Source of the DNA: Microcaldota archaeon
Lineage (GTDB): Archaea > Micrarchaeota > Micrarchaeia > Micrarchaeales > CABMGC01
Assembly (NCBI GenBank): GCA_021789155.1
Contig: JAJYJW010000008.1
Span: forward strand, 1-37,977
Direction: 5' to 3'
DNA length: 37,977 nucleotides
The notes beneath the pieces were generated by a model that worked only from the letters and a program-made list of their open reading frames with translations, did not search any database and was not told the DNA's origin. Shown here one piece after another: positions 11,688 to 20,184 of this stretch. Each line of letters opens with the position of its first letter. Position 1 is the stretch's first letter. Both the position numbers and the translations under genes were made by a program.

Positions 11688-14600
11688 ATGGCGAGGAAAA
11701 CAAGCAAACCTAGAGTTTCGAATAATTCGAAAAAAGCGCAATCAGCGATTGAATACATGCTTTCGTACAGCTGGGCGATAATCGTAGTAGCTGTCGTCTT
11801 CGTGCTTTTGTACCTTTTTGTGTTCGTTCCCGGAACCATCGCACCTAACACGTGCACGTTCAGCAACGGTGCCAATTGCCAGGCGATAGTTTTCGGGTCT
11901 AACTCGCAGAGTTCGTCTTTTGCGGTTCTTCTGTCCAATAACCAGCAATTCGCGATAATAAATCCCGTGCTGTACATCAATACCACGCAGTATGGGGTTC
12001 TAACCGCAACATGCGCACCAAACCTTGTCCTCCCAGGAGGTGCGATGATTTGCAGCAACACTATTTCCACAACGAGTTCACAGGGGTCTTTGGTTTATGG
12101 AAAGACTATTTTACAGGCGATTCCTTGCCCAAGCAAGATATACAATCAATGCACTAGCGGTAACGTGCAAAATTATGCAGGTACGTTCTCAACACATTCG
12201 CAACCAATCCTTTCCTCTACGCCGATAAGCATAACCCTTGCTGCCACCAACACCACACAACTTATCGGAGGTGGTTTGGATCCATTGACCGCAACAGTCA
12301 AGATGCTTGGATATCCGATAACCGGAGCCACAGTAGTATTCTCTGCAGTCACTAATCCACAGTATGCAACGTTCTCGCCAAACGTCACTACGAGTACATC
12401 AAACGGCACCGCAATTTCAGAATTCTCTGGCTTGGGAAATGCAGCCACTGGGACAAGCGTAGAAGTTAAGGCAACATATGCTGGAGTCGACTCCAATATA
12501 GTGACGATTACTTTGCAAGCGCCAGTAGGAGTTACATTTGCGCTTAACCCTGCGCAGATGTCTGGAGTAGGCGCAACTACCACAGTACTCACTATAGACA
12601 GCACGCCTTATGTCTACAGCCAGTTCACGAATGGAGAAATAACAGTCAATCTTGCACCCAATTCCCAGCACACCTATTCGTTTTCAAGCGCCATTGGTGC
12701 TGGAACTGGAATACAATACGGAAGTCCTTCATTTGACAACAACTGTGGCGTATCCTCCGCAGCTGGACAATTATCAATTGGTACTGCAGGCTGTGCTTCA
12801 ACCATAACATACAAACTACAGTATTATCTTACGGTAGCGCATAGCGGAGATGGAGTTTCGTACACTTTATCGCCTTTATCAGGATGGCAGAATGCAGGTA
12901 ATCTGATTACCATAAATGAACAGCTATCCGATTCGGTGAACAATGCTGCGTTGGGATGGAGTGGAACTTCTGGAAGTTACGACTGCGCCCAAGGCGTTTA
13001 TTGCTATTCGGGAAGCCAGACAAGCAACACATTTACACTCAATGCACCCACCACAGAATACGCCAATGTAAATGCAATATACACGTTGACATTGAAACTG
13101 TCTAGCGCTACCGATCCTACAACCATGGAAAGCGGAGTTAGCAGCAATACCATAATCAGCCTCGTAGGAAGCGGAGTATCTCCTTCGTTGACATATTCAA
13201 ACTTTCCATACACCGTAAGGGTGATTTCTGGGAACAGTATAGGCTACACTTACAAAAACGGAGTACAGGCTTCAACAAATGATGGAATACGATACTTGTT
13301 CACGAGCACTAAGAGCGATAACCAATGCGCTACGGGAAATAGCGCTACGGGAAGCATAACTATAAGCGGAACATGCACCGAGCTTACTGGAAACTATCAA
13401 CCCCAGGATCAGATAACCTTCGCGGTTTACAACTCTTTGGACTACAATACCCAACATACTTATGATTGGTTTAGCGGAGGCACTGCCAATAGTGGGTTAA
13501 CGCCTTATTCGATAAACGTAAACAGTGTTAATTATCAATGCTCCTCTACAGGAACTGGATGCACCGATACAACAATATGGCAGAACTACAATACGGCATT
13601 GGCTTATTCGTACAACTCTGTGGTCACGGCATTGAACGGACAAGAACGTTGGAACTTCGCAAGCGCAGCTACATCCAACAGCGTTACTTGCATACTTGGA
13701 AGCTCTACGAATCCAACTTCTACTGTGACTGCTACGAACCCTTGCACCGTGACTGCAAGTGAAACAAAACAAGGTGCAGTTATATTTGCAGTGTACAATT
13801 CGATGGATGTAAACATAGACAACACAAACTTCCATGTAGTGACTTTAGGCGCCAGCAATTATGGATGCAGTTCTACGGGCACAAGTTGTACCGCAACTAC
13901 AGCATGGCAAAACCTTAACGCCCAGTTAGGGTACACTTACTTTAGTGGAGAACTTGGACATATAGGTGGAACGCGTTGGGTATTTGACCATGCAACGGGA
14001 AACAGCGGTTGCGCTCTATCAAGTGGCACCACCGCTACAGCAGGCGTAACTCCTTCGAACCCATGTATAGTTACAGCATATGAAAACAAACAATTCCTGA
14101 TAACCTTTTCAATTCAAACGGTGAACAATGCAGCGTATGCTAGTAGCCTTGCTGCAGAAAACGTAGTGACTTTGGCAGGGACTGGATTCGCTGGTGGACA
14201 AGCGTCAGTTTGGGTTTATCCAGGAACTTACTCTTATTCTCTTGCTCCAGACCAATTCTCATCAAGTAAGTCGTCAGTTGCAGATAGTGGTGCAGGGTGG
14301 ACCACCGGTTATTTGGGTTCTGGCTCTTCCCAGACAATACCTGCAAAGATGTATTATTATCAGGGAAGCGATGGAGGATGTGGAATATCCACATTATCTA
14401 CAGTAATTTCTGGCAGCGTTACTATAAGTACTGCTGCATGTTCGGCGGTGCTCACTTATACACCAGCATGGGCATTTACTATATACTCTGATATATACGG
14501 AAGCGCAAGCTGTGTAACCACAGATACTTCGCCATCTGCACAGTATTATTATTACAAAGGTTGGGGTCAAGCTACAAGCATTTCTACTCCCACAAGTTGT

Positions 14601-15425
14601 GGATCATATTATTTCAACGGATGGACAGGAACAGGATATGCTGCAGCTTATGGTGGCGGATCAACTGAACTATGCCCTGCACAGAGCGGATACAACTTCG
14701 AAACGACATCCGGGAGCACGTGTATATACTGCCCACAGACATATAGTGGATATACAGTTTATTGGGATGGAAGCAATTGTTACTACAACGCACCTTATTA
14801 TGGTGGCAGCTACATAAAAACGATTATTAGCAAGTATACTGCAAGCGGGTCAATTACTACAACAGGCCAATCATCAACAACATATTCCTATGGCGACATA
14901 GTGCAACATGCGACATACACTACATCACCACCAGCATCATTAGCCTATCCAGCATACGTTAATTGCAATTTGAACGACTACGTAAACCAATTCTGCACTC
15001 CATCAGGGTATAGTGCACCAGGAACATACGGTTGCTGGGGAGGATGGTCTGATCCGTATGTATCTGGAGTCGGTTCCATAAGCCAGGCAACCAATGGATG
15101 TACCGCGCCCACCTTCTATGGCTCGAGTTCATCGAGCGGATACAGTGCAACTTCGTGCTTTTCCTGGTGTGGCTACCAACTAGCAAGATTAAGAGACGAA
15201 GCAGGATATGGTGGACAAACTGTTAGCGCATCATGGACTTGCTACCTAACTACTGGGCCAGGAACAACAACGCCATGTGGTTCAAGCCCAGGAGTGTGTG
15301 CATCAGGATACTCTAGGTACACCCAGGGATATTATTCTGACACATTAAGCTACAGTTATGGCACATGCACTTACGACACAATGGTTACAAGAGACTGCCC
15401 TGCAACGTTGCTTAGCTGCCCGTAG
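11688..15425 (+). CDS. Giant pilin-signal surface protein with Ig-like and Cys-rich repeats
   Basis: This is a 1245-residue surface protein. The N-terminus has a basic leader (1-17), the class III cleavage motif QSAIEYM (18-24) and a hydrophobic helix to about residue 48, so it should be processed like an archaeal pilin. Residues about 177-280 resemble a bacterial-type Ig (invasin-like) domain, with LTATVKMLGYPITGATVVFSA. Residues about 520-830 hold at least three related units of about 110 residues, each with W- or Y-x-F, paired Cys and a VTA-x-E or Q-x-x-I-F segment. The C-terminal third is rich in Tyr, Gly, Ser and Cys. There is no C-terminal membrane helix or recognisable sorting motif, so anchoring probably relies on the pilin-like N-terminus. 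A function in adhesion or as an S-layer-like structure is inferred. Codon use looks more A/C-rich than in neighbouring genes. Confidence 0.8.
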   Translation: MARKTSKPRVSNNSKKAQSAIEYMLSYSWAIIVVAVVFVLLYLFVFVPGTIAPNTCTFSNGANCQAIVFGSNSQSSSFAVLLSNNQQFAIINPVLYINTTQYGVLTATCAPNLVLPGGAMICSNTISTTSSQGSLVYGKTILQAIPCPSKIYNQCTSGNVQNYAGTFSTHSQPILSSTPISITLAATNTTQLIGGGLDPLTATVKMLGYPITGATVVFSAVTNPQYATFSPNVTTSTSNGTAISEFSGLGNAATGTSVEVKATYAGVDSNIVTITLQAPVGVTFALNPAQMSGVGATTTVLTIDSTPYVYSQFTNGEITVNLAPNSQHTYSFSSAIGAGTGIQYGSPSFDNNCGVSSAAGQLSIGTAGCASTITYKLQYYLTVAHSGDGVSYTLSPLSGWQNAGNLITINEQLSDSVNNAALGWSGTSGSYDCAQGVYCYSGSQTSNTFTLNAPTTEYANVNAIYTLTLKLSSATDPTTMESGVSSNTIISLVGSGVSPSLTYSNFPYTVRVISGNSIGYTYKNGVQASTNDGIRYLFTSTKSDNQCATGNSATGSITISGTCTELTGNYQPQDQITFAVYNSLDYNTQHTYDWFSGGTANSGLTPYSINVNSVNYQCSSTGTGCTDTTIWQNYNTALAYSYNSVVTALNGQERWNFASAATSNSVTCILGSSTNPTSTVTATNPCTVTASETKQGAVIFAVYNSMDVNIDNTNFHVVTLGASNYGCSSTGTSCTATTAWQNLNAQLGYTYFSGELGHIGGTRWVFDHATGNSGCALSSGTTATAGVTPSNPCIVTAYENKQFLITFSIQTVNNAAYASSLAAENVVTLAGTGFAGGQASVWVYPGTYSYSLAPDQFSSSKSSVADSGAGWTTGYLGSGSSQTIPAKMYYYQGSDGGCGISTLSTVISGSVTISTAACSAVLTYTPAWAFTIYSDIYGSASCVTTDTSPSAQYYYYKGWGQATSISTPTSCGSYYFNGWTGTGYAAAYGGGSTELCPAQSGYNFETTSGSTCIYCPQTYSGYTVYWDGSNCYYNAPYYGGSYIKTIISKYTASGSITTTGQSSTTYSYGDIVQHATYTTSPPASLAYPAYVNCNLNDYVNQFCTPSGYSAPGTYGCWGGWSDPYVSGVGSISQATNGCTAPTFYGSSSSSGYSATSCFSWCGYQLARLRDEAGYGGQTVSASWTCYLTTGPGTTTPCGSSPGVCASGYSRYTQGYYSDTLSYSYGTCTYDTMVTRDCPATLLSCP
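13200..14130 (+). repeat. Diverged tandem protein repeats (about 109 aa) in the giant surface protein
   Basis: Units starting at NYQCSSTGTGC (codon at 13530) and NYGCSSTGTSC (codon at 13857) are aligned 109 codons apart and share the order C-SSTGT-C, WQN, Y-Y, RW-F, C, NPC-VTA, K. An earlier unit before 13500 shares the second half (RYLF, C, TGN, IFAVYNSLD-like). The DNA has diverged, so these are old protein repeats rather than recent tandem copies. Confidence 0.6.
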
Positions 15426-16935: not shown

Positions 16936-17646
16936 ATGATAAACAAGAAACCCTATGTAATCGCAGAAATAGACAAAGACACACCTGATGTTACACTTTT
17001 CAAATTCAAAGCGCAAGATGGGAGCAAGCTAGATTTCAAACCCGGAATGTTCGTGATGCTCCACCATAAAGACGCACAGACCGGTGCGGATATAGGAAGG
17101 GCGTTTTCTCTCGCATCGCTTCCGAACGACGACACTATCGAATTCGCGATAAGCATGATCCATGGAAGGTTTACCTCCTACCTCGATACTGCAAAGGTCG
17201 GAGACATCTACTACGTAACTGGCCCTTACGGCCAATTCCAATTCAATGCGGGAATTGACAGCAAAGTGATGTTCATAGCAGGAGGTACTGGAATAGCACC
17301 ATTTCTATCTATGCTTAGGCAAATAAAGCACGAAAATCTGAGCACAGACGTAAAGCTCATATACAGCGTGCGATTCCATAAGGACATAATAAGAAAGGAG
17401 GAACTGGAGCAGTATCGGAATGAGCTTACGTTTGATTATTGTGTGACCGCGACCAGGGAAGGTACTGATGAATGGAGCGGAGAGCATGGGCACGTTAACG
17501 AGGATATGGTGAAAAAGCATGCTCCAGACATCACTGAAAGAACCTGCTACGTTTGCGGGCCTTTGGAGTTCACTAAGGCTGTGCAGAATGTACTTGTTTC
17601 TCTTGGCGTTGATAAGCAGAAGATAAAGGCCGATGTCTGGGGCTGA
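16936..17646 (+). CDS. FAD/NAD(P)-binding oxidoreductase (ferredoxin reductase-like)
   Basis: This is a ferredoxin-NAD(P)+ reductase-type flavoprotein moving electrons between NAD(P)H and a small carrier in the cytoplasm. The protein of about 236 residues has an N-terminal FAD barrel with the flavin motif RAFSLAS, a phosphate-binding GRFTSYL and GPYGQF, and a C-terminal nucleotide domain with FIAGGTGIAPFLSML, YVCGP and the terminal DVWG. There is no Cys cluster for a 2Fe-2S centre, which separates it from PyrK-type and hydrogenase gamma subunits. The ATG at 16936 is preferred over the GTG at 16924 from the A/T-rich box near 16903. The last 74 nt overlap the end of the convergent Nudix-UDG gene. 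The electron partner is unknown. Confidence 0.85.
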   Translation: MINKKPYVIAEIDKDTPDVTLFKFKAQDGSKLDFKPGMFVMLHHKDAQTGADIGRAFSLASLPNDDTIEFAISMIHGRFTSYLDTAKVGDIYYVTGPYGQFQFNAGIDSKVMFIAGGTGIAPFLSMLRQIKHENLSTDVKLIYSVRFHKDIIRKEELEQYRNELTFDYCVTATREGTDEWSGEHGHVNEDMVKKHAPDITERTCYVCGPLEFTKAVQNVLVSLGVDKQKIKADVWG

Positions 17647-18652
17647 AATTCTGCCTCTGGCTGTTCGCGCCCTGCGATTTCGCGCGAGTGCTTACTTCTT
17701 TGCCGAATCTTTTGAATTGCGACATCATGCCGTTGTATGCTGCTTTCAGTCTCAGCGCGCGTGCGGGATGGACTGCAACATAATACCGGATCCCGTTTTT
17801 CTCAATCATCCTGCCAGGGGTGGTGTCGGAACCTTTGCCGAACAGCGATTCCGTTGCGAACTTGCCGAGCAGTATGATGTACTTGGGCTTGACCAACGCT
17901 ATCTGGCGCTCCAGAAGGGGCAGGCATAAAGCTTGCTCCTCATCGGTTGGAAGCCTGTTCTCTGGCGGAAAGAACTGCACGACGCTCGTTATGTATGTAT
18001 TCCTTCTGTCCAGATGTGCCGCGGCCAGCATCTTGTTCAGTATCACTCCCGAACGGCCAACGAATGGCGCGAGGAGCTTGTCCTCGTTCCTCCCGGGAGC
18101 TTGTCCTATGAGCATGACTTTTGCGTCAAGCGCCCCTGCCCCAGGAACCAGTCTTGAGCTCAGCTGCCATTGCGCGTTTTTCGAAGGCAATTCCGCGTAT
18201 TCCTTATTCAATGCGAGCATTGCCTCATACCTTGGGATGTACGCGAATGCCCTTTTCAAGATTGAAGAGAGTTCCCTGTACTTGATTCTAGCTAGGGCAT
18301 CCTTCTCGTTCAGCCAGCAAAAACCTTTGTGTTCTTCTGATGCCTTTACGTCCTTTCCGTCGGTTTTCGCAAGATATATGTTTACTTGCTTCGAGACTTT
18401 TTTGCTTGGTCCATCGTAGCGTTCTATGAACCTGTATCTTGTCGAAGCAGAAAACGAAGGGACGAATTCTACGTCTAGGTTTGTTTCCTCCTTTATCTCG
18501 CGCTTTGCGGCTATCACGGAGTTTTCTCCCTGCTCTATATGGCCTTTTGCTATGTCCAATTTGTCGTTGAACCTTATGAGAAACAACATCTTAATCGTGT
18601 TGTTTTCCATCTTGTATATCAATGCGCCCGCAGAATTCTCGAACTGCATCAT
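17573..18652 (-). CDS. Nudix hydrolase fused to a family 4-like uracil-DNA glycosylase
   Basis: A 359-residue two-domain protein. Residues 1-140 are a Nudix hydrolase resembling diadenosine tetraphosphatases: SAGALIY at the start, then a complete Nudix box (Gly37, Glu43, Arg51-Glu52, Glu55-Glu56). Residues about 158-318 match family 4 uracil-DNA glycosylase: GQAPGRNED (183-191), PFVGRSG, FFPPENRLPTDEE, LLGKFA and HPAR (295-298). Typical family 4 enzymes hold a 4Fe-4S cluster with four Cys; here only Cys243 aligns, and the KCRPP position is QFFPP. The usual motif-1 Glu is Gln184. The C-terminal tail (about 320-359) is basic and probably disordered, and lies in the antisense overlap. The ATG at 18652 overlaps the archaeosortase stop as ATGA. 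A joint role in nucleotide clean-up and uracil repair is plausible; activity is unproven. Confidence 0.85.
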   Translation of the reverse strand: MMQFENSAGALIYKMENNTIKMLFLIRFNDKLDIAKGHIEQGENSVIAAKREIKEETNLDVEFVPSFSASTRYRFIERYDGPSKKVSKQVNIYLAKTDGKDVKASEEHKGFCWLNEKDALARIKYRELSSILKRAFAYIPRYEAMLALNKEYAELPSKNAQWQLSSRLVPGAGALDAKVMLIGQAPGRNEDKLLAPFVGRSGVILNKMLAAAHLDRRNTYITSVVQFFPPENRLPTDEEQALCLPLLERQIALVKPKYIILLGKFATESLFGKGSDTTPGRMIEKNGIRYYVAVHPARALRLKAAYNGMMSQFKRFGKEVSTRAKSQGANSQRQNFSPRHRPLSSAYQRQEKQVHSAQP

Positions 18653-20184
18653 ACCACAATGTGCTTGAATATGCAATATGCATTATCCATTTCATACATT
18701 TTAGAAGTATTCATCGTTCCCTGCGTGATGAATGAAAGCAAGTTTGAATATATATCTGAATCATAAGCGCATCCCTTAGAATAGTATCCAGTACTCAATG
18801 GCATTATGAAATACGTATCCACCGGGGAAAAGGTGTTTGCAGTAAAGTAAGGCAGTACTGAGGAGAACACGAAGAATTCGGTGCTGTTTGAAACTATGTC
18901 GTAACCGTTGACTATTGTCCCGTTGTTTATGAACACTCTGCTTCCAGATATTGAGGAATTGTGGAGAATGTCCGATATCGATGACGAATTAGTAGCGCTG
19001 AACACGCCGACTATCGGGTTAGATTGGTTGAAGATCTCGTTACTGAATAGGATCGCTATGCTCCTGCCATCGCTATAGTATATTGCCGATGCGTTCCATC
19101 CGGTTGCATTTACTATTTTATGCAGATACTGCAGCGAGGTTATCGAATTTGCCACGAACTGCGTGGTGTTCATTGCTGCAAGCACGGGAACGCGCGTAGT
19201 ATTCACGAATATCTGCGATGCGAATAGATACGCCAGCACCCCGATTACTGCAAACACGTATGCGAAGACATGGCTAGGCTCGCCTGTGACTTTTTCTGAT
19301 AGTTCAATTTTCATGCTCTTTATCTTAAGGCCGAATATCCCTGCTGCTGGGAGCATTATGAGTATCGCAGCGTAGAATATCAAAACGCCAATGAATAGAT
19401 GAATCGTGGAAACAACTGCAGACGGGCCTTTAACGAGCCATACTGCCGCAATTCCGGCCATTCTTGAAAGGTTCAATATGAACAGCAGGAATATGCCAGA
19501 TGCCAACCAGTACGCTTTAGCCGATAATTTCCCGTCGAAGAGGTATGCGACTGGCAGCATGAACAAGAGCAATGCGATGAATACGGCAACCCCTGCGCAT
19601 GCAGTGCCTATGCCTATGCTTATCGTATTGTAACTTATGGAAAACGGAGCAGTGAATGAAACCCCGTTGATGAATGTATGCAGCACAGAAAAGATTATTT
19701 GCGAGTTTACAGATGCGAATGCGCTGTTCGCGGATATGACCGGATAGAATATGAGCGGAGAAGCAAGCACAGAATAGATCAACGCGTACCTGAACTTGCG
19801 TATGTTTGAAAATCCGTAGATTATAGAGATCAGCGCTATCGCGGCGATTGGGAACAGAAGCATGTCAATCCTATAGCTTATGAATAGGTATTGAGAGGAA
19901 TAGTAAAGATACGACATTAGCACAGCCAACGCTATGAGCAACGCGAATCCCAGCATTATGCTCTTTATGGAAGTTGAAGGAATGGGATTTTCCTTGAAAA
20001 GTATGAATGCAAAGAAAAGCGGAAGCATTATTATTGGGGCTATTACATACGTAGATGCATCGATGTTGTCTATGCTTGGATTCGTTATCAATAGGGAACT
20101 GGCTAACAGAGCCACCAGACACAAAAGAAATGCGATCTTCGGATATTGTAATTCCTTTTTCTTCGTTTTCGTTCCCATCACCAT
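18649..20184 (-). CDS. Archaeosortase/exosortase-like membrane transpeptidase
   Basis: This 511-residue membrane protein has about nine transmembrane helices in its first 325 residues, then an exported domain of about 185 residues rich in N-glycosylation sequons (NTT, NAS, NSS, NGT). The exosortase/archaeosortase catalytic triad is visible in the right order: Cys196 in GTACAGVAV, Arg241 in NLSRMAG and His262 in STIHLFIG. The family cleaves C-terminal sorting signals of surface proteins and can attach them to lipid. No protein in this window has an evident C-terminal sorting tripartite signal, so its substrates must be elsewhere. The downstream Nudix-UDG gene starts inside its stop codon. An ATG at 20178 is an alternative start. 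The catalytic Cys context ACAG differs slightly from the common ACSG. Confidence 0.8.
   Translation of the reverse strand: MVMGTKTKKKELQYPKIAFLLCLVALLASSLLITNPSIDNIDASTYVIAPIIMLPLFFAFILFKENPIPSTSIKSIMLGFALLIALAVLMSYLYYSSQYLFISYRIDMLLFPIAAIALISIIYGFSNIRKFRYALIYSVLASPLIFYPVISANSAFASVNSQIIFSVLHTFINGVSFTAPFSISYNTISIGIGTACAGVAVFIALLLFMLPVAYLFDGKLSAKAYWLASGIFLLFILNLSRMAGIAAVWLVKGPSAVVSTIHLFIGVLIFYAAILIMLPAAGIFGLKIKSMKIELSEKVTGEPSHVFAYVFAVIGVLAYLFASQIFVNTTRVPVLAAMNTTQFVANSITSLQYLHKIVNATGWNASAIYYSDGRSIAILFSNEIFNQSNPIVGVFSATNSSSISDILHNSSISGSRVFINNGTIVNGYDIVSNSTEFFVFSSVLPYFTANTFSPVDTYFIMPLSTGYYSKGCAYDSDIYSNLLSFITQGTMNTSKMYEMDNAYCIFKHIVV

What the first reader, a model, noticed from the sequence alone, without database searches (positions are those of the whole stretch)
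17573..18652. Nudix-uracil-DNA glycosylase fusion lacking the Fe-S cluster ligands
Seen: a complete Nudix box in an Ap4A-hydrolase-like domain, joined to a family 4-like UDG domain in which three of the four expected cluster Cys are absent (only Cys243 aligns) and the motif-1 Glu is Gln. Known: family 4 UDGs carry a 4Fe-4S cluster. Inference: a cluster-free UDG branch coupled to nucleotide-pool clean-up, perhaps removing both the damaged nucleotide and its product in DNA with one polypeptide.
Basis: partly seen in the sequence, partly recalled or inferred. Interest (0 to 1): 0.7.

Follow-up and report, generated by a model that had tools for sequence, protein, structure and literature searches.

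The report
Iron-free uracil-repair enzyme fused to Nudix
A tiny archaeon, like most of its order, makes its only recognisable uracil-DNA-repair enzyme as one chain with a nucleotide-cleaving Nudix enzyme, and that repair part has lost the iron-sulfur cluster its relatives carry, giving a natural experiment on what the cluster is for.

Summary
ORF 17573-18652(-) encodes 359 aa: an Ap4A-hydrolase-like Nudix domain joined by a long helix to a family-4-derived UDG domain. The protein has only two cysteines (C112, C243), so the family-4 4Fe-4S site cannot form.

It is not a local accident. I recovered 108 distinct fusions of this kind, in 113 of 164 genomes of this micrarchaeal order plus Ferroplasma-type Thermoplasmata. 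None keeps the N-terminal CxxC. Three substrate-pocket residues also differ (TthUDGa E41 to Q, N80 to S, K83 to Q), while the catalytic Asn and His stay fixed. Intermediates exist, and an upstream archaeosortase gene is linked.

A second fusion with the domains in reverse order (four-Cys UDG, then Nudix) occurs in other Thermoplasmata. The domains have therefore joined at least twice.

Best reading: a cluster-free UDG-superfamily glycosylase, probably active on uracil or another deaminated base, fused to an active dinucleoside-polyphosphate-type Nudix hydrolase. 'Nucleotide-pool clean-up of the same lesion' is weakly supported: the Nudix domain is closest to Ap4A hydrolases, and a dUTPase/DCD-type gene is present. 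Activities are untested. New variant of a known kind.

The parts
17573..18652 (-). Nudix-UDG fusion gene, 359 aa
   Evidence: 108 distinct homologous fusions; AlphaFold2 model pLDDT 90.9, pTM 0.86
18290..18631 (-). Nudix domain, residues 8-121, Ap4A-hydrolase-like
   Evidence: Pfam PF00293; closest PDB chain 1kt9 Ap4A hydrolase; structural Z 21.0 to 1ktg, 131 residues at 1.4 A
18476..18544 (-). Nudix box GHIEQGENSVIAAKREIKEETNL, residues 37-59; E52, E55, E56 invariant in relatives
18194..18277 (-). long helix 126-153 that joins the two domains
   Evidence: predicted structure
17741..18145 (-). UDG domain, residues 170-304 (fold spans about 144-324)
   Evidence: Pfam PF03167; Z 26.9 to T. thermophilus UDGa 1ui1 over 177 residues, 1.8 A
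18092..18106 (-). motif 1 GQAPG, residues 183-187; Q184 replaces TthUDGa E41
   Evidence: Q in 106 of 108 fusions, E in all 52 four-Cys relatives
17957..17986 (-). motif 3 region SVVQFFPPEN, residues 223-232: S223 (N80), Q226 (K83), F227 (third cluster Cys), N232 (catalytic N89)
17924..17926 (-). C243, the only surviving cluster-ligand position
   Evidence: C in 104 of 108 fusions
17762..17770 (-). motif 2 HPA, residues 295-297; H295 = catalytic H155
   Evidence: H in 108 of 108
17576..17686 (-). C-terminal tail, residues 323-359; 331-359 predicted disordered; absent from most relatives; overlaps the convergent gene by 74 bases
18649..20184 (-). archaeosortase/exosortase-family gene directly upstream, 4-base ATGA overlap; linkage conserved across the order
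   Evidence: TIGR04178 and PF09721; linkage; junction

Best explanation
A two-domain enzyme. SHOWN by sequence or model: (1) an intact Ap4A-hydrolase-type Nudix domain; (2) a UDG domain with the family-4 fold that has lost the 4Fe-4S ligands, has Phe/Pro at two ligand positions, and keeps the catalytic Asn (N232) and His (H295), the uracil-stacking Phe (F197) and E190; (3) a predicted rigid two-domain architecture; (4) largely vertical inheritance across an order of Micrarchaeota, placement of the Thermoplasmata copies inside that group, and an independent reverse-order fusion elsewhere. INFERRED: the UDG half is still a DNA glycosylase. H295 stabilises the leaving base and N232 places the water, as in TthUDGa, and the fold no longer needs the cluster. 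Uracil is the likeliest substrate, but Q184, S223 and Q226 predict a slower or wider-specificity enzyme. INFERRED: the Nudix half hydrolyses Ap4A or a similar nucleotide with Mg2+ through E52, E55 and E56. The recurrent fusion suggests the two activities are used together, but how is unknown.
For: Domains and cut-offs. Fold matches: Z 26.9 to family-4 UDG and Z 21.0 to Ap4A hydrolase. Across 108 fusions: E47 equivalent 108/108, F54 equivalent 108/108, N89 equivalent 107/108, H155 equivalent 108/108, no CxxC in any. Nudix E52, E55, E56 are 97/97. The mechanism of N89 and H155 in TthUDGa is from PMC5387724. Cys-to-Ser changes in family-4 UDG cost only about 40% of activity, so cluster loss is tolerable (PMC5295032). 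It is the only PF03167 match in its own genome. The genome has an AP endonuclease IV-type hit to follow a glycosylase. The Fe-S assembly genes SufBD and two EndoIII-like proteins with intact C-x6-C-x2-C-x5-C remain, so the loss is specific to this UDG. The reverse-order four-Cys fusion is a separate clade in the Nudix tree and lies apart in the UDG tree.
Against: E41Q alone cuts TthUDGa kcat/Km by 888-fold and N80A by over 40-fold, so uracil excision could be weak or lost. An EndoQ-like gene below its family cut-off is also present and could carry uracil repair. At least seven cluster-free members lack the Nudix domain while keeping the same upstream gene in six cases, so the coupling is not obligatory. 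The window's protein is a divergent member that departs from near-invariant positions (P35, G58, H279, A298, D312). No activity data exist for any member.
Confidence: 0.6

Rival explanations
1. The UDG half no longer acts on uracil: the joint change of E41, N80 and K83 has moved it to another base lesion (for example hypoxanthine, xanthine or an oxidised pyrimidine), or it only binds DNA.
For: All three changed residues lie at or beside the uracil pocket. N80 makes both hydrogen bonds to uracil and K83 supports N80. Q-S-Q is almost fixed in 108 fusions. EndoQ-like and HhH glycosylases could handle uracil.
Against: Ser at the N80 position also occurs in four-Cys relatives that keep E41 and K83 or Arg (5 of 36 solo, 4 of 16 reverse fusions). 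GQAPG is common in phage UDG domains that keep the Asn. Catalytic Asn and His are fixed. There is no other PF03167 protein in the genome.
Confidence: 0.25
2. One reading: the Nudix half cleans damaged dNTPs (dUTP, 8-oxo-dGTP) whose products in DNA the UDG half removes.
For: It would explain a fusion that arose twice. Mycobacterial MutT1 (8-oxo-dGTP, Z 18.8) is among the structural matches. The reverse fusion's Nudix also matches an 8-oxo-(d)GTP phosphatase after the Ap4A/Ap6A hydrolases.
Against: Closest sequence and fold matches are Ap4A hydrolases. A dUTPase/DCD-type gene and six other Nudix genes are present. 8-oxoG is not a known UDG-superfamily substrate (own knowledge).
Confidence: 0.15
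3. No functional coupling: two housekeeping enzymes happened to be joined in compact genomes and the fusion is neutral.
For: Nudix has been lost in place in several genomes. Very small genomes with overlapping genes. No known pathway links Ap4A and uracil excision.
Against: The fusion persists in 113 of 164 genomes, arose again in the reverse order, survived transfer to Thermoplasmata, and both active sites stay intact.
Confidence: 0.3
4. The Nudix half acts on adenylated or capped nucleic-acid ends, for example 5'-AppDNA left by abortive ligation at incised abasic sites, as aprataxin does with a HIT domain.
For: App-ended DNA resembles the dinucleoside polyphosphates of Ap4A hydrolases, and some ApnA hydrolases are noted to recognise cap-like substrates (PMC5389931). 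It would join the first and last steps of base excision repair.
Against: No direct evidence. No DNA-end-binding feature was identified.
Confidence: 0.08

Closest known systems
Family 4 uracil-DNA glycosylase (UDGa; T. thermophilus 1ui0/1ui1, S. tokodaii 4zbx, T. maritima 1l9g)
   Same: Fold (Z 25-27), TIGR00758 above cut-off, PFVG, PPxNR, HPA, catalytic Asn and His.
   Different: Three of four cluster Cys gone; GQAPG instead of GE(A/G)PG; Ser for N80; Gln for K83; N-terminal Nudix domain.
UDGX (M. smegmatis)
   Same: Fold (Z about 24).
   Different: Below the TIGR03914 cut-off (88.9 vs 189.95); no R-loop with the cross-linking His; UDGX keeps GEQP.
Asymmetric Ap4A hydrolase (C. elegans 1ktg, human NUDT2)
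   Same: Fold (Z 20-21), Nudix box, conserved Lys (K88), EH and W near the C-terminal strand.
   Different: Joined to a UDG domain; substrate untested.
[quoted passage not shown]
   Same: A DNA glycosylase carrying a Nudix-fold domain (PMC9266487).
   Different: MutY is an HhH enzyme with a 4Fe-4S cluster and a non-catalytic Nudix-like domain; here the Nudix box is intact, the glycosylase fold is UDG, and the cluster is absent.
Reverse-order UDG-Nudix fusion of Thermoplasmata (found here: L150, L160, L217 and 13 others)
   Same: Family-4 UDG plus a Nudix domain in one chain.
   Different: UDG first, four Cys and GE(A/G)PG kept; Nudix from another branch (closest to Aquifex Ap4A hydrolase and Thermus Ndx1).
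Phage UDG domains fused to DNA polymerase
   Same: GQAPG motif 1; some also lack the Cys and read QFFP or QLFP (L249, L250).
   Different: Fused to a polymerase-size chain; no Nudix match; most keep four Cys and the Asn.

Membership tests
Family 4 UDG | Score above the TIGR00758 curated cut-off | tested here: met
   134.4 vs 125.3 bits
Family 4 UDG | Score above NF040953 (archaeal type-4 equivalog) | tested here: not met
   125 vs 250 bits
Family 4 UDG | Four Cys ligands of a 4Fe-4S cluster | tested here: not met
   Only C112 and C243 in the protein; no CxxC in 108 fusions, CxxC in 52 of 52 four-Cys relatives
Family 4 UDG | Motif 1 GE(A/G)PG | tested here: not met
   GQAPG; Q in 106 of 108
Family 4 UDG | Catalytic Asn (N89) and His (H155) | tested here: met
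   N232 in 107/108, H295 in 108/108
Family 4 UDG | Uracil-recognition Asn (N80) | tested here: not met
   S223; Ser in 103 of 108, Asn in 5
Family 4 UDG | Uracil excision from DNA | not testable with these tools
   needs an assay
UDGX | Score above the TIGR03914 cut-off | tested here: not met
   88.9 vs 189.95 bits
Nudix hydrolase | Nudix box with catalytic REUxEE and PF00293 above cut-off | tested here: met
   44.9 vs 21.1 bits; E52, E55, E56 invariant; last box Gly is N58 here
Asymmetric Ap4A hydrolase | Closest sequence and fold match | tested here: met
   1kt9 E=3.2e-10; 1ktg Z 21.0
Asymmetric Ap4A hydrolase | Conserved X-loop tyrosine that contacts the substrate | tested here: inconclusive
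   Y73 is conserved in 92 of 97 but pairwise alignment of this loop is ambiguous
Asymmetric Ap4A hydrolase | Hydrolysis of Ap4A to ATP and AMP | not testable with these tools
   needs an assay

The most novel reading that the evidence does not exclude
An order of minute archaea relies on a cluster-free DNA glycosylase of shifted base specificity, physically coupled to a dinucleoside-polyphosphate (or adenylated-DNA) hydrolase, so that base excision and a nucleotide signal or by-product are handled by one enzyme. The same coupling evolved a second time, in the reverse order, in Thermoplasmata.
Probability: 0.2. Interest if true: 0.8.

Novelty: new variant of a known kind. Interest (0 to 1): 0.6.

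Why it matters
Whether the 4Fe-4S cluster in DNA-repair enzymes is structural or has a redox role is a long-standing question. Here is a clade of over a hundred family-4-derived enzymes that lost the cluster while the same genome keeps it in EndoIII-like proteins, with partial intermediates (L124, L131, L031). It is a natural comparison set for that question, and for how motif-1 and pocket residues co-evolve. The twice-evolved Nudix-UDG fusion points to an unrecognised link between nucleotide hydrolysis and base excision that can be tested directly, including with the protein of Ferroplasma acidarmanus Fer1.

Tried and rejected
Frameshift or pseudogene: rejected, homologs at 45-52% identity have the same losses. 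Loss because the organism lacks Fe-S assembly: rejected, SufBD and cluster-bearing EndoIII-like proteins are present. Nudix as stand-in for a missing dUTPase: weakened, a dUTPase/DCD-type gene is present in 7 of the 8 genomes tested, the own genome included. Nudix as a necessary prop for the cluster-free fold: weakened, solo cluster-free UDGs exist (L117-L123) and a standalone intermediate (L124). The GQ motif as proof of inactivity: rejected, phage UDG domains with GQAPG keep other pocket residues. The literature searches found no description of a Nudix-UDG fusion or of a cluster-free family-4 UDG, but only open-access papers are held. Viral contigs gave no Nudix-UDG fusion. What fills the former cluster site in the model could not be inspected, since no coordinates were available. 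Some ORFs of 305-371 aa in Thermoplasmata (L226-L234) looked like fusions, but no Nudix match was found and their extra length looks like unannotated reading frame upstream of the UDG.

Full report
WHAT WAS CHECKED. The gene at 17573-18652 on the minus strand encodes 359 aa. Pfam places NUDIX at 8-121 and the UDG superfamily at 170-304, both above cut-off. NCBIfam scores it above the subfamily cut-off for family 4 UDG (TIGR00758) but far below the archaeal type-4 equivalog and UdgX models. The protein has two cysteines in all, C112 and C243. The motif-1 Glu is Gln184, also as stated. The only correction is that the last Gly of the Nudix box is Asn58.

DISTRIBUTION. The window is a contig of a 0.8 Mb genome of Micrarchaeota (record titles of relatives), in which this is the only PF03167 match. 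Searching 301 genomes of the phylum gave matches spanning both domains in 113 genomes (my count from the table). All lie in the window's own order, of which 164 genomes are held. A second order-wide search shows that most of these genomes have a single UDG-superfamily gene. Outside Micrarchaeota the same fusion occurs in Ferroplasma acidarmanus Fer1 and relatives, 8 of 350 Thermoplasmata genomes. A full-length tree puts the Thermoplasmata copies in one clade (99/94) inside the second micrarchaeal family (96/97 for the joint group), which fits one transfer from Micrarchaeota to Thermoplasmata; the exact branching inside that family is less sure (87/83).

RESIDUES. In a joint alignment of 108 distinct fusions, 8 solo relatives and 52 four-Cys UDGs (36 solo, 16 reverse-order fusions) from related genomes, the fusions have no N-terminal CxxC, Phe or Tyr at the third Cys in 107 of 108, and Cys at the fourth position in 104 of 108. 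E47, F54 and H155 equivalents are invariant, and N89 is kept in 107. Three positions at or next to the uracil pocket change with the cluster: E41 is Gln in 106 of 108 (Glu in 52 of 52 four-Cys enzymes), K83 is Gln in 106 (Lys in 49 of 52, Arg in 3), and N80 is Ser in 103 (Asn in 43 of 52, Ser in 9). In TthUDGa, N80 hydrogen-bonds uracil N3 and O4, E41Q alone costs 888-fold and N80A over 40-fold in kcat/Km, and N89 and H155 carry catalysis (PMC5387724). K83 supports N80 (PMC10776899). Intermediates exist: L124, a standalone enzyme that has only the fourth cluster Cys but has GEAAG and Lys; L031, a fusion with GEAPG and VVQFRPP; and L210, a fusion with GQSPG but Asn and Lys. L131 is another partial loser. 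The changes therefore came in steps. Some phage polymerase-fused UDG domains without the Cys also read QFFP or QLFP, which hints that Gln-Phe at this place is a recurrent answer to losing the cluster.

STRUCTURE. AlphaFold2 from 25 sequences gives pLDDT 90.9 and pTM 0.86, with a 28-residue helix (126-153) running from the Nudix domain into the UDG domain, and a disordered tail 331-359. The UDG half matches family-4 structures at Z 25-27 and the Nudix half Ap4A hydrolases at Z 20-21 (Foldseek). The fold is thus predicted to stand without the cluster; this is a prediction, not a measurement. Published Cys-to-Ser changes in family-4 UDGs cost only about 40% of activity (PMC5295032), so cluster loss is biochemically plausible.

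WHY THE CLUSTER WENT. It is not for lack of Fe-S biogenesis: SufBD is present in all eight genomes tested, and two EndoIII-like proteins in the own genome keep C-x6-C-x2-C-x5-C (L212, L213). The loss is specific to this enzyme. Its cause is unknown.

THE NUDIX PARTNER. Best sequence matches are Ap4A hydrolases (1kt9, E=3.2e-10; human NUDT2; Chlamydia CT771). A dUTPase/DCD-type gene and six other Nudix genes exist in the genome, so neither dUTP cleaning nor Nudix activity in general depends on this domain. Searching Thermoplasmata turned up a second fusion with the reverse order, UDG first and Nudix last, with four Cys and GEAPG or GEGPG (16 sequences). It is a separate clade in the Nudix tree (100) and lies apart from the first fusion in the UDG tree. 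Its Nudix domain is closest to Aquifex Ap4A hydrolase and Thermus Ndx1. Two independent joinings of the same two kinds of domain argue for a shared use, but what that use is remains open. MutY, a glycosylase with a non-catalytic Nudix-like domain, is a precedent of form, not of mechanism (PMC9266487).

NEIGHBOURHOOD. An archaeosortase/exosortase-family gene lies directly upstream and overlaps the start by ATGA. Of micrarchaeal fusion loci with informative flanks (some genomes counted twice), 105 have it and two (L046, L051) do not; the Thermoplasmata copies lack it. Six of the solo cluster-free UDGs keep the same upstream gene, so the ancestral order was most likely archaeosortase-Nudix-UDG, with Nudix lost in place. 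No functional link between the two is known to me.

REPAIR CONTEXT. The own genome also has three HhH-GPD proteins, an EndoQ-like protein below its family cut-off, next to one EndoIII-like gene, and an AP endonuclease IV-type protein. Multiple overlapping uracil-repair routes are usual in archaea (PMC6202378), so this UDG may not be the sole route.

VERDICT. Real, widespread and conserved, not found described in the open-access literature searched, and with testable consequences. It works like a UDG-superfamily glycosylase by its conserved catalytic residues, but it fails three defining features of family 4 (cluster, motif 1, N80), so it is filed as a family-4-derived branch and not as a family-4 member.

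Noticed in passing
L150, L154, L155, L157, L159, L160, L162, L217-L225: Reverse-order UDG-Nudix fusion (four-Cys UDG first, Nudix last) in Thermoplasmata; an independent origin of the same domain pair.
   Followed up: partly
window 18649-20184 and loci: Archaeosortase-family gene locked upstream of the Nudix-UDG gene across the order, overlapping its start; kept even where Nudix was lost.
   Followed up: partly
L178, L179, L180: A different cluster-free UDG (GEAPG, VITNV, KSHP, Trp at the fourth Cys) in one genus of the same order that shows no full fusion.
   Followed up: no
L172-L177: One genus of the same family carries a four-Cys UDG of family-5 type (GLAPSAHG...HVSP) where no full fusion was found.
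   Followed up: no
L248-L251: Phage UDG domains on polymerase-size chains that have lost the cluster Cys; some read QFFP or QLFP like the archaeal clade.
   Followed up: partly
L191: A fusion with GESPG and a degraded motif 3 (no N89 equivalent): perhaps losing or changing glycosylase activity.
   Followed up: no
L212 (G000:C3:2500-8000): An EndoQ-like gene next to an EndoIII-like gene in the own genome.
   Followed up: no
window 11688-15425 (+): 1245-aa protein with no family match, a pilin-like hydrophobic N-terminus (AQSAIEYMLSYSWAIIVVAVVFVLL) and 40 cysteines.
   Followed up: no
window 17573-17646: 74-base tail-to-tail overlap of the fusion's disordered tail with the convergent FAD/NAD oxidoreductase gene.
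   Followed up: no
window 17573-18652: The window's copy departs from near-invariant positions (P35 to A, G58 to N, H279 to P, A298 to R, D312 to Q) and sits on a long branch.
   Followed up: no
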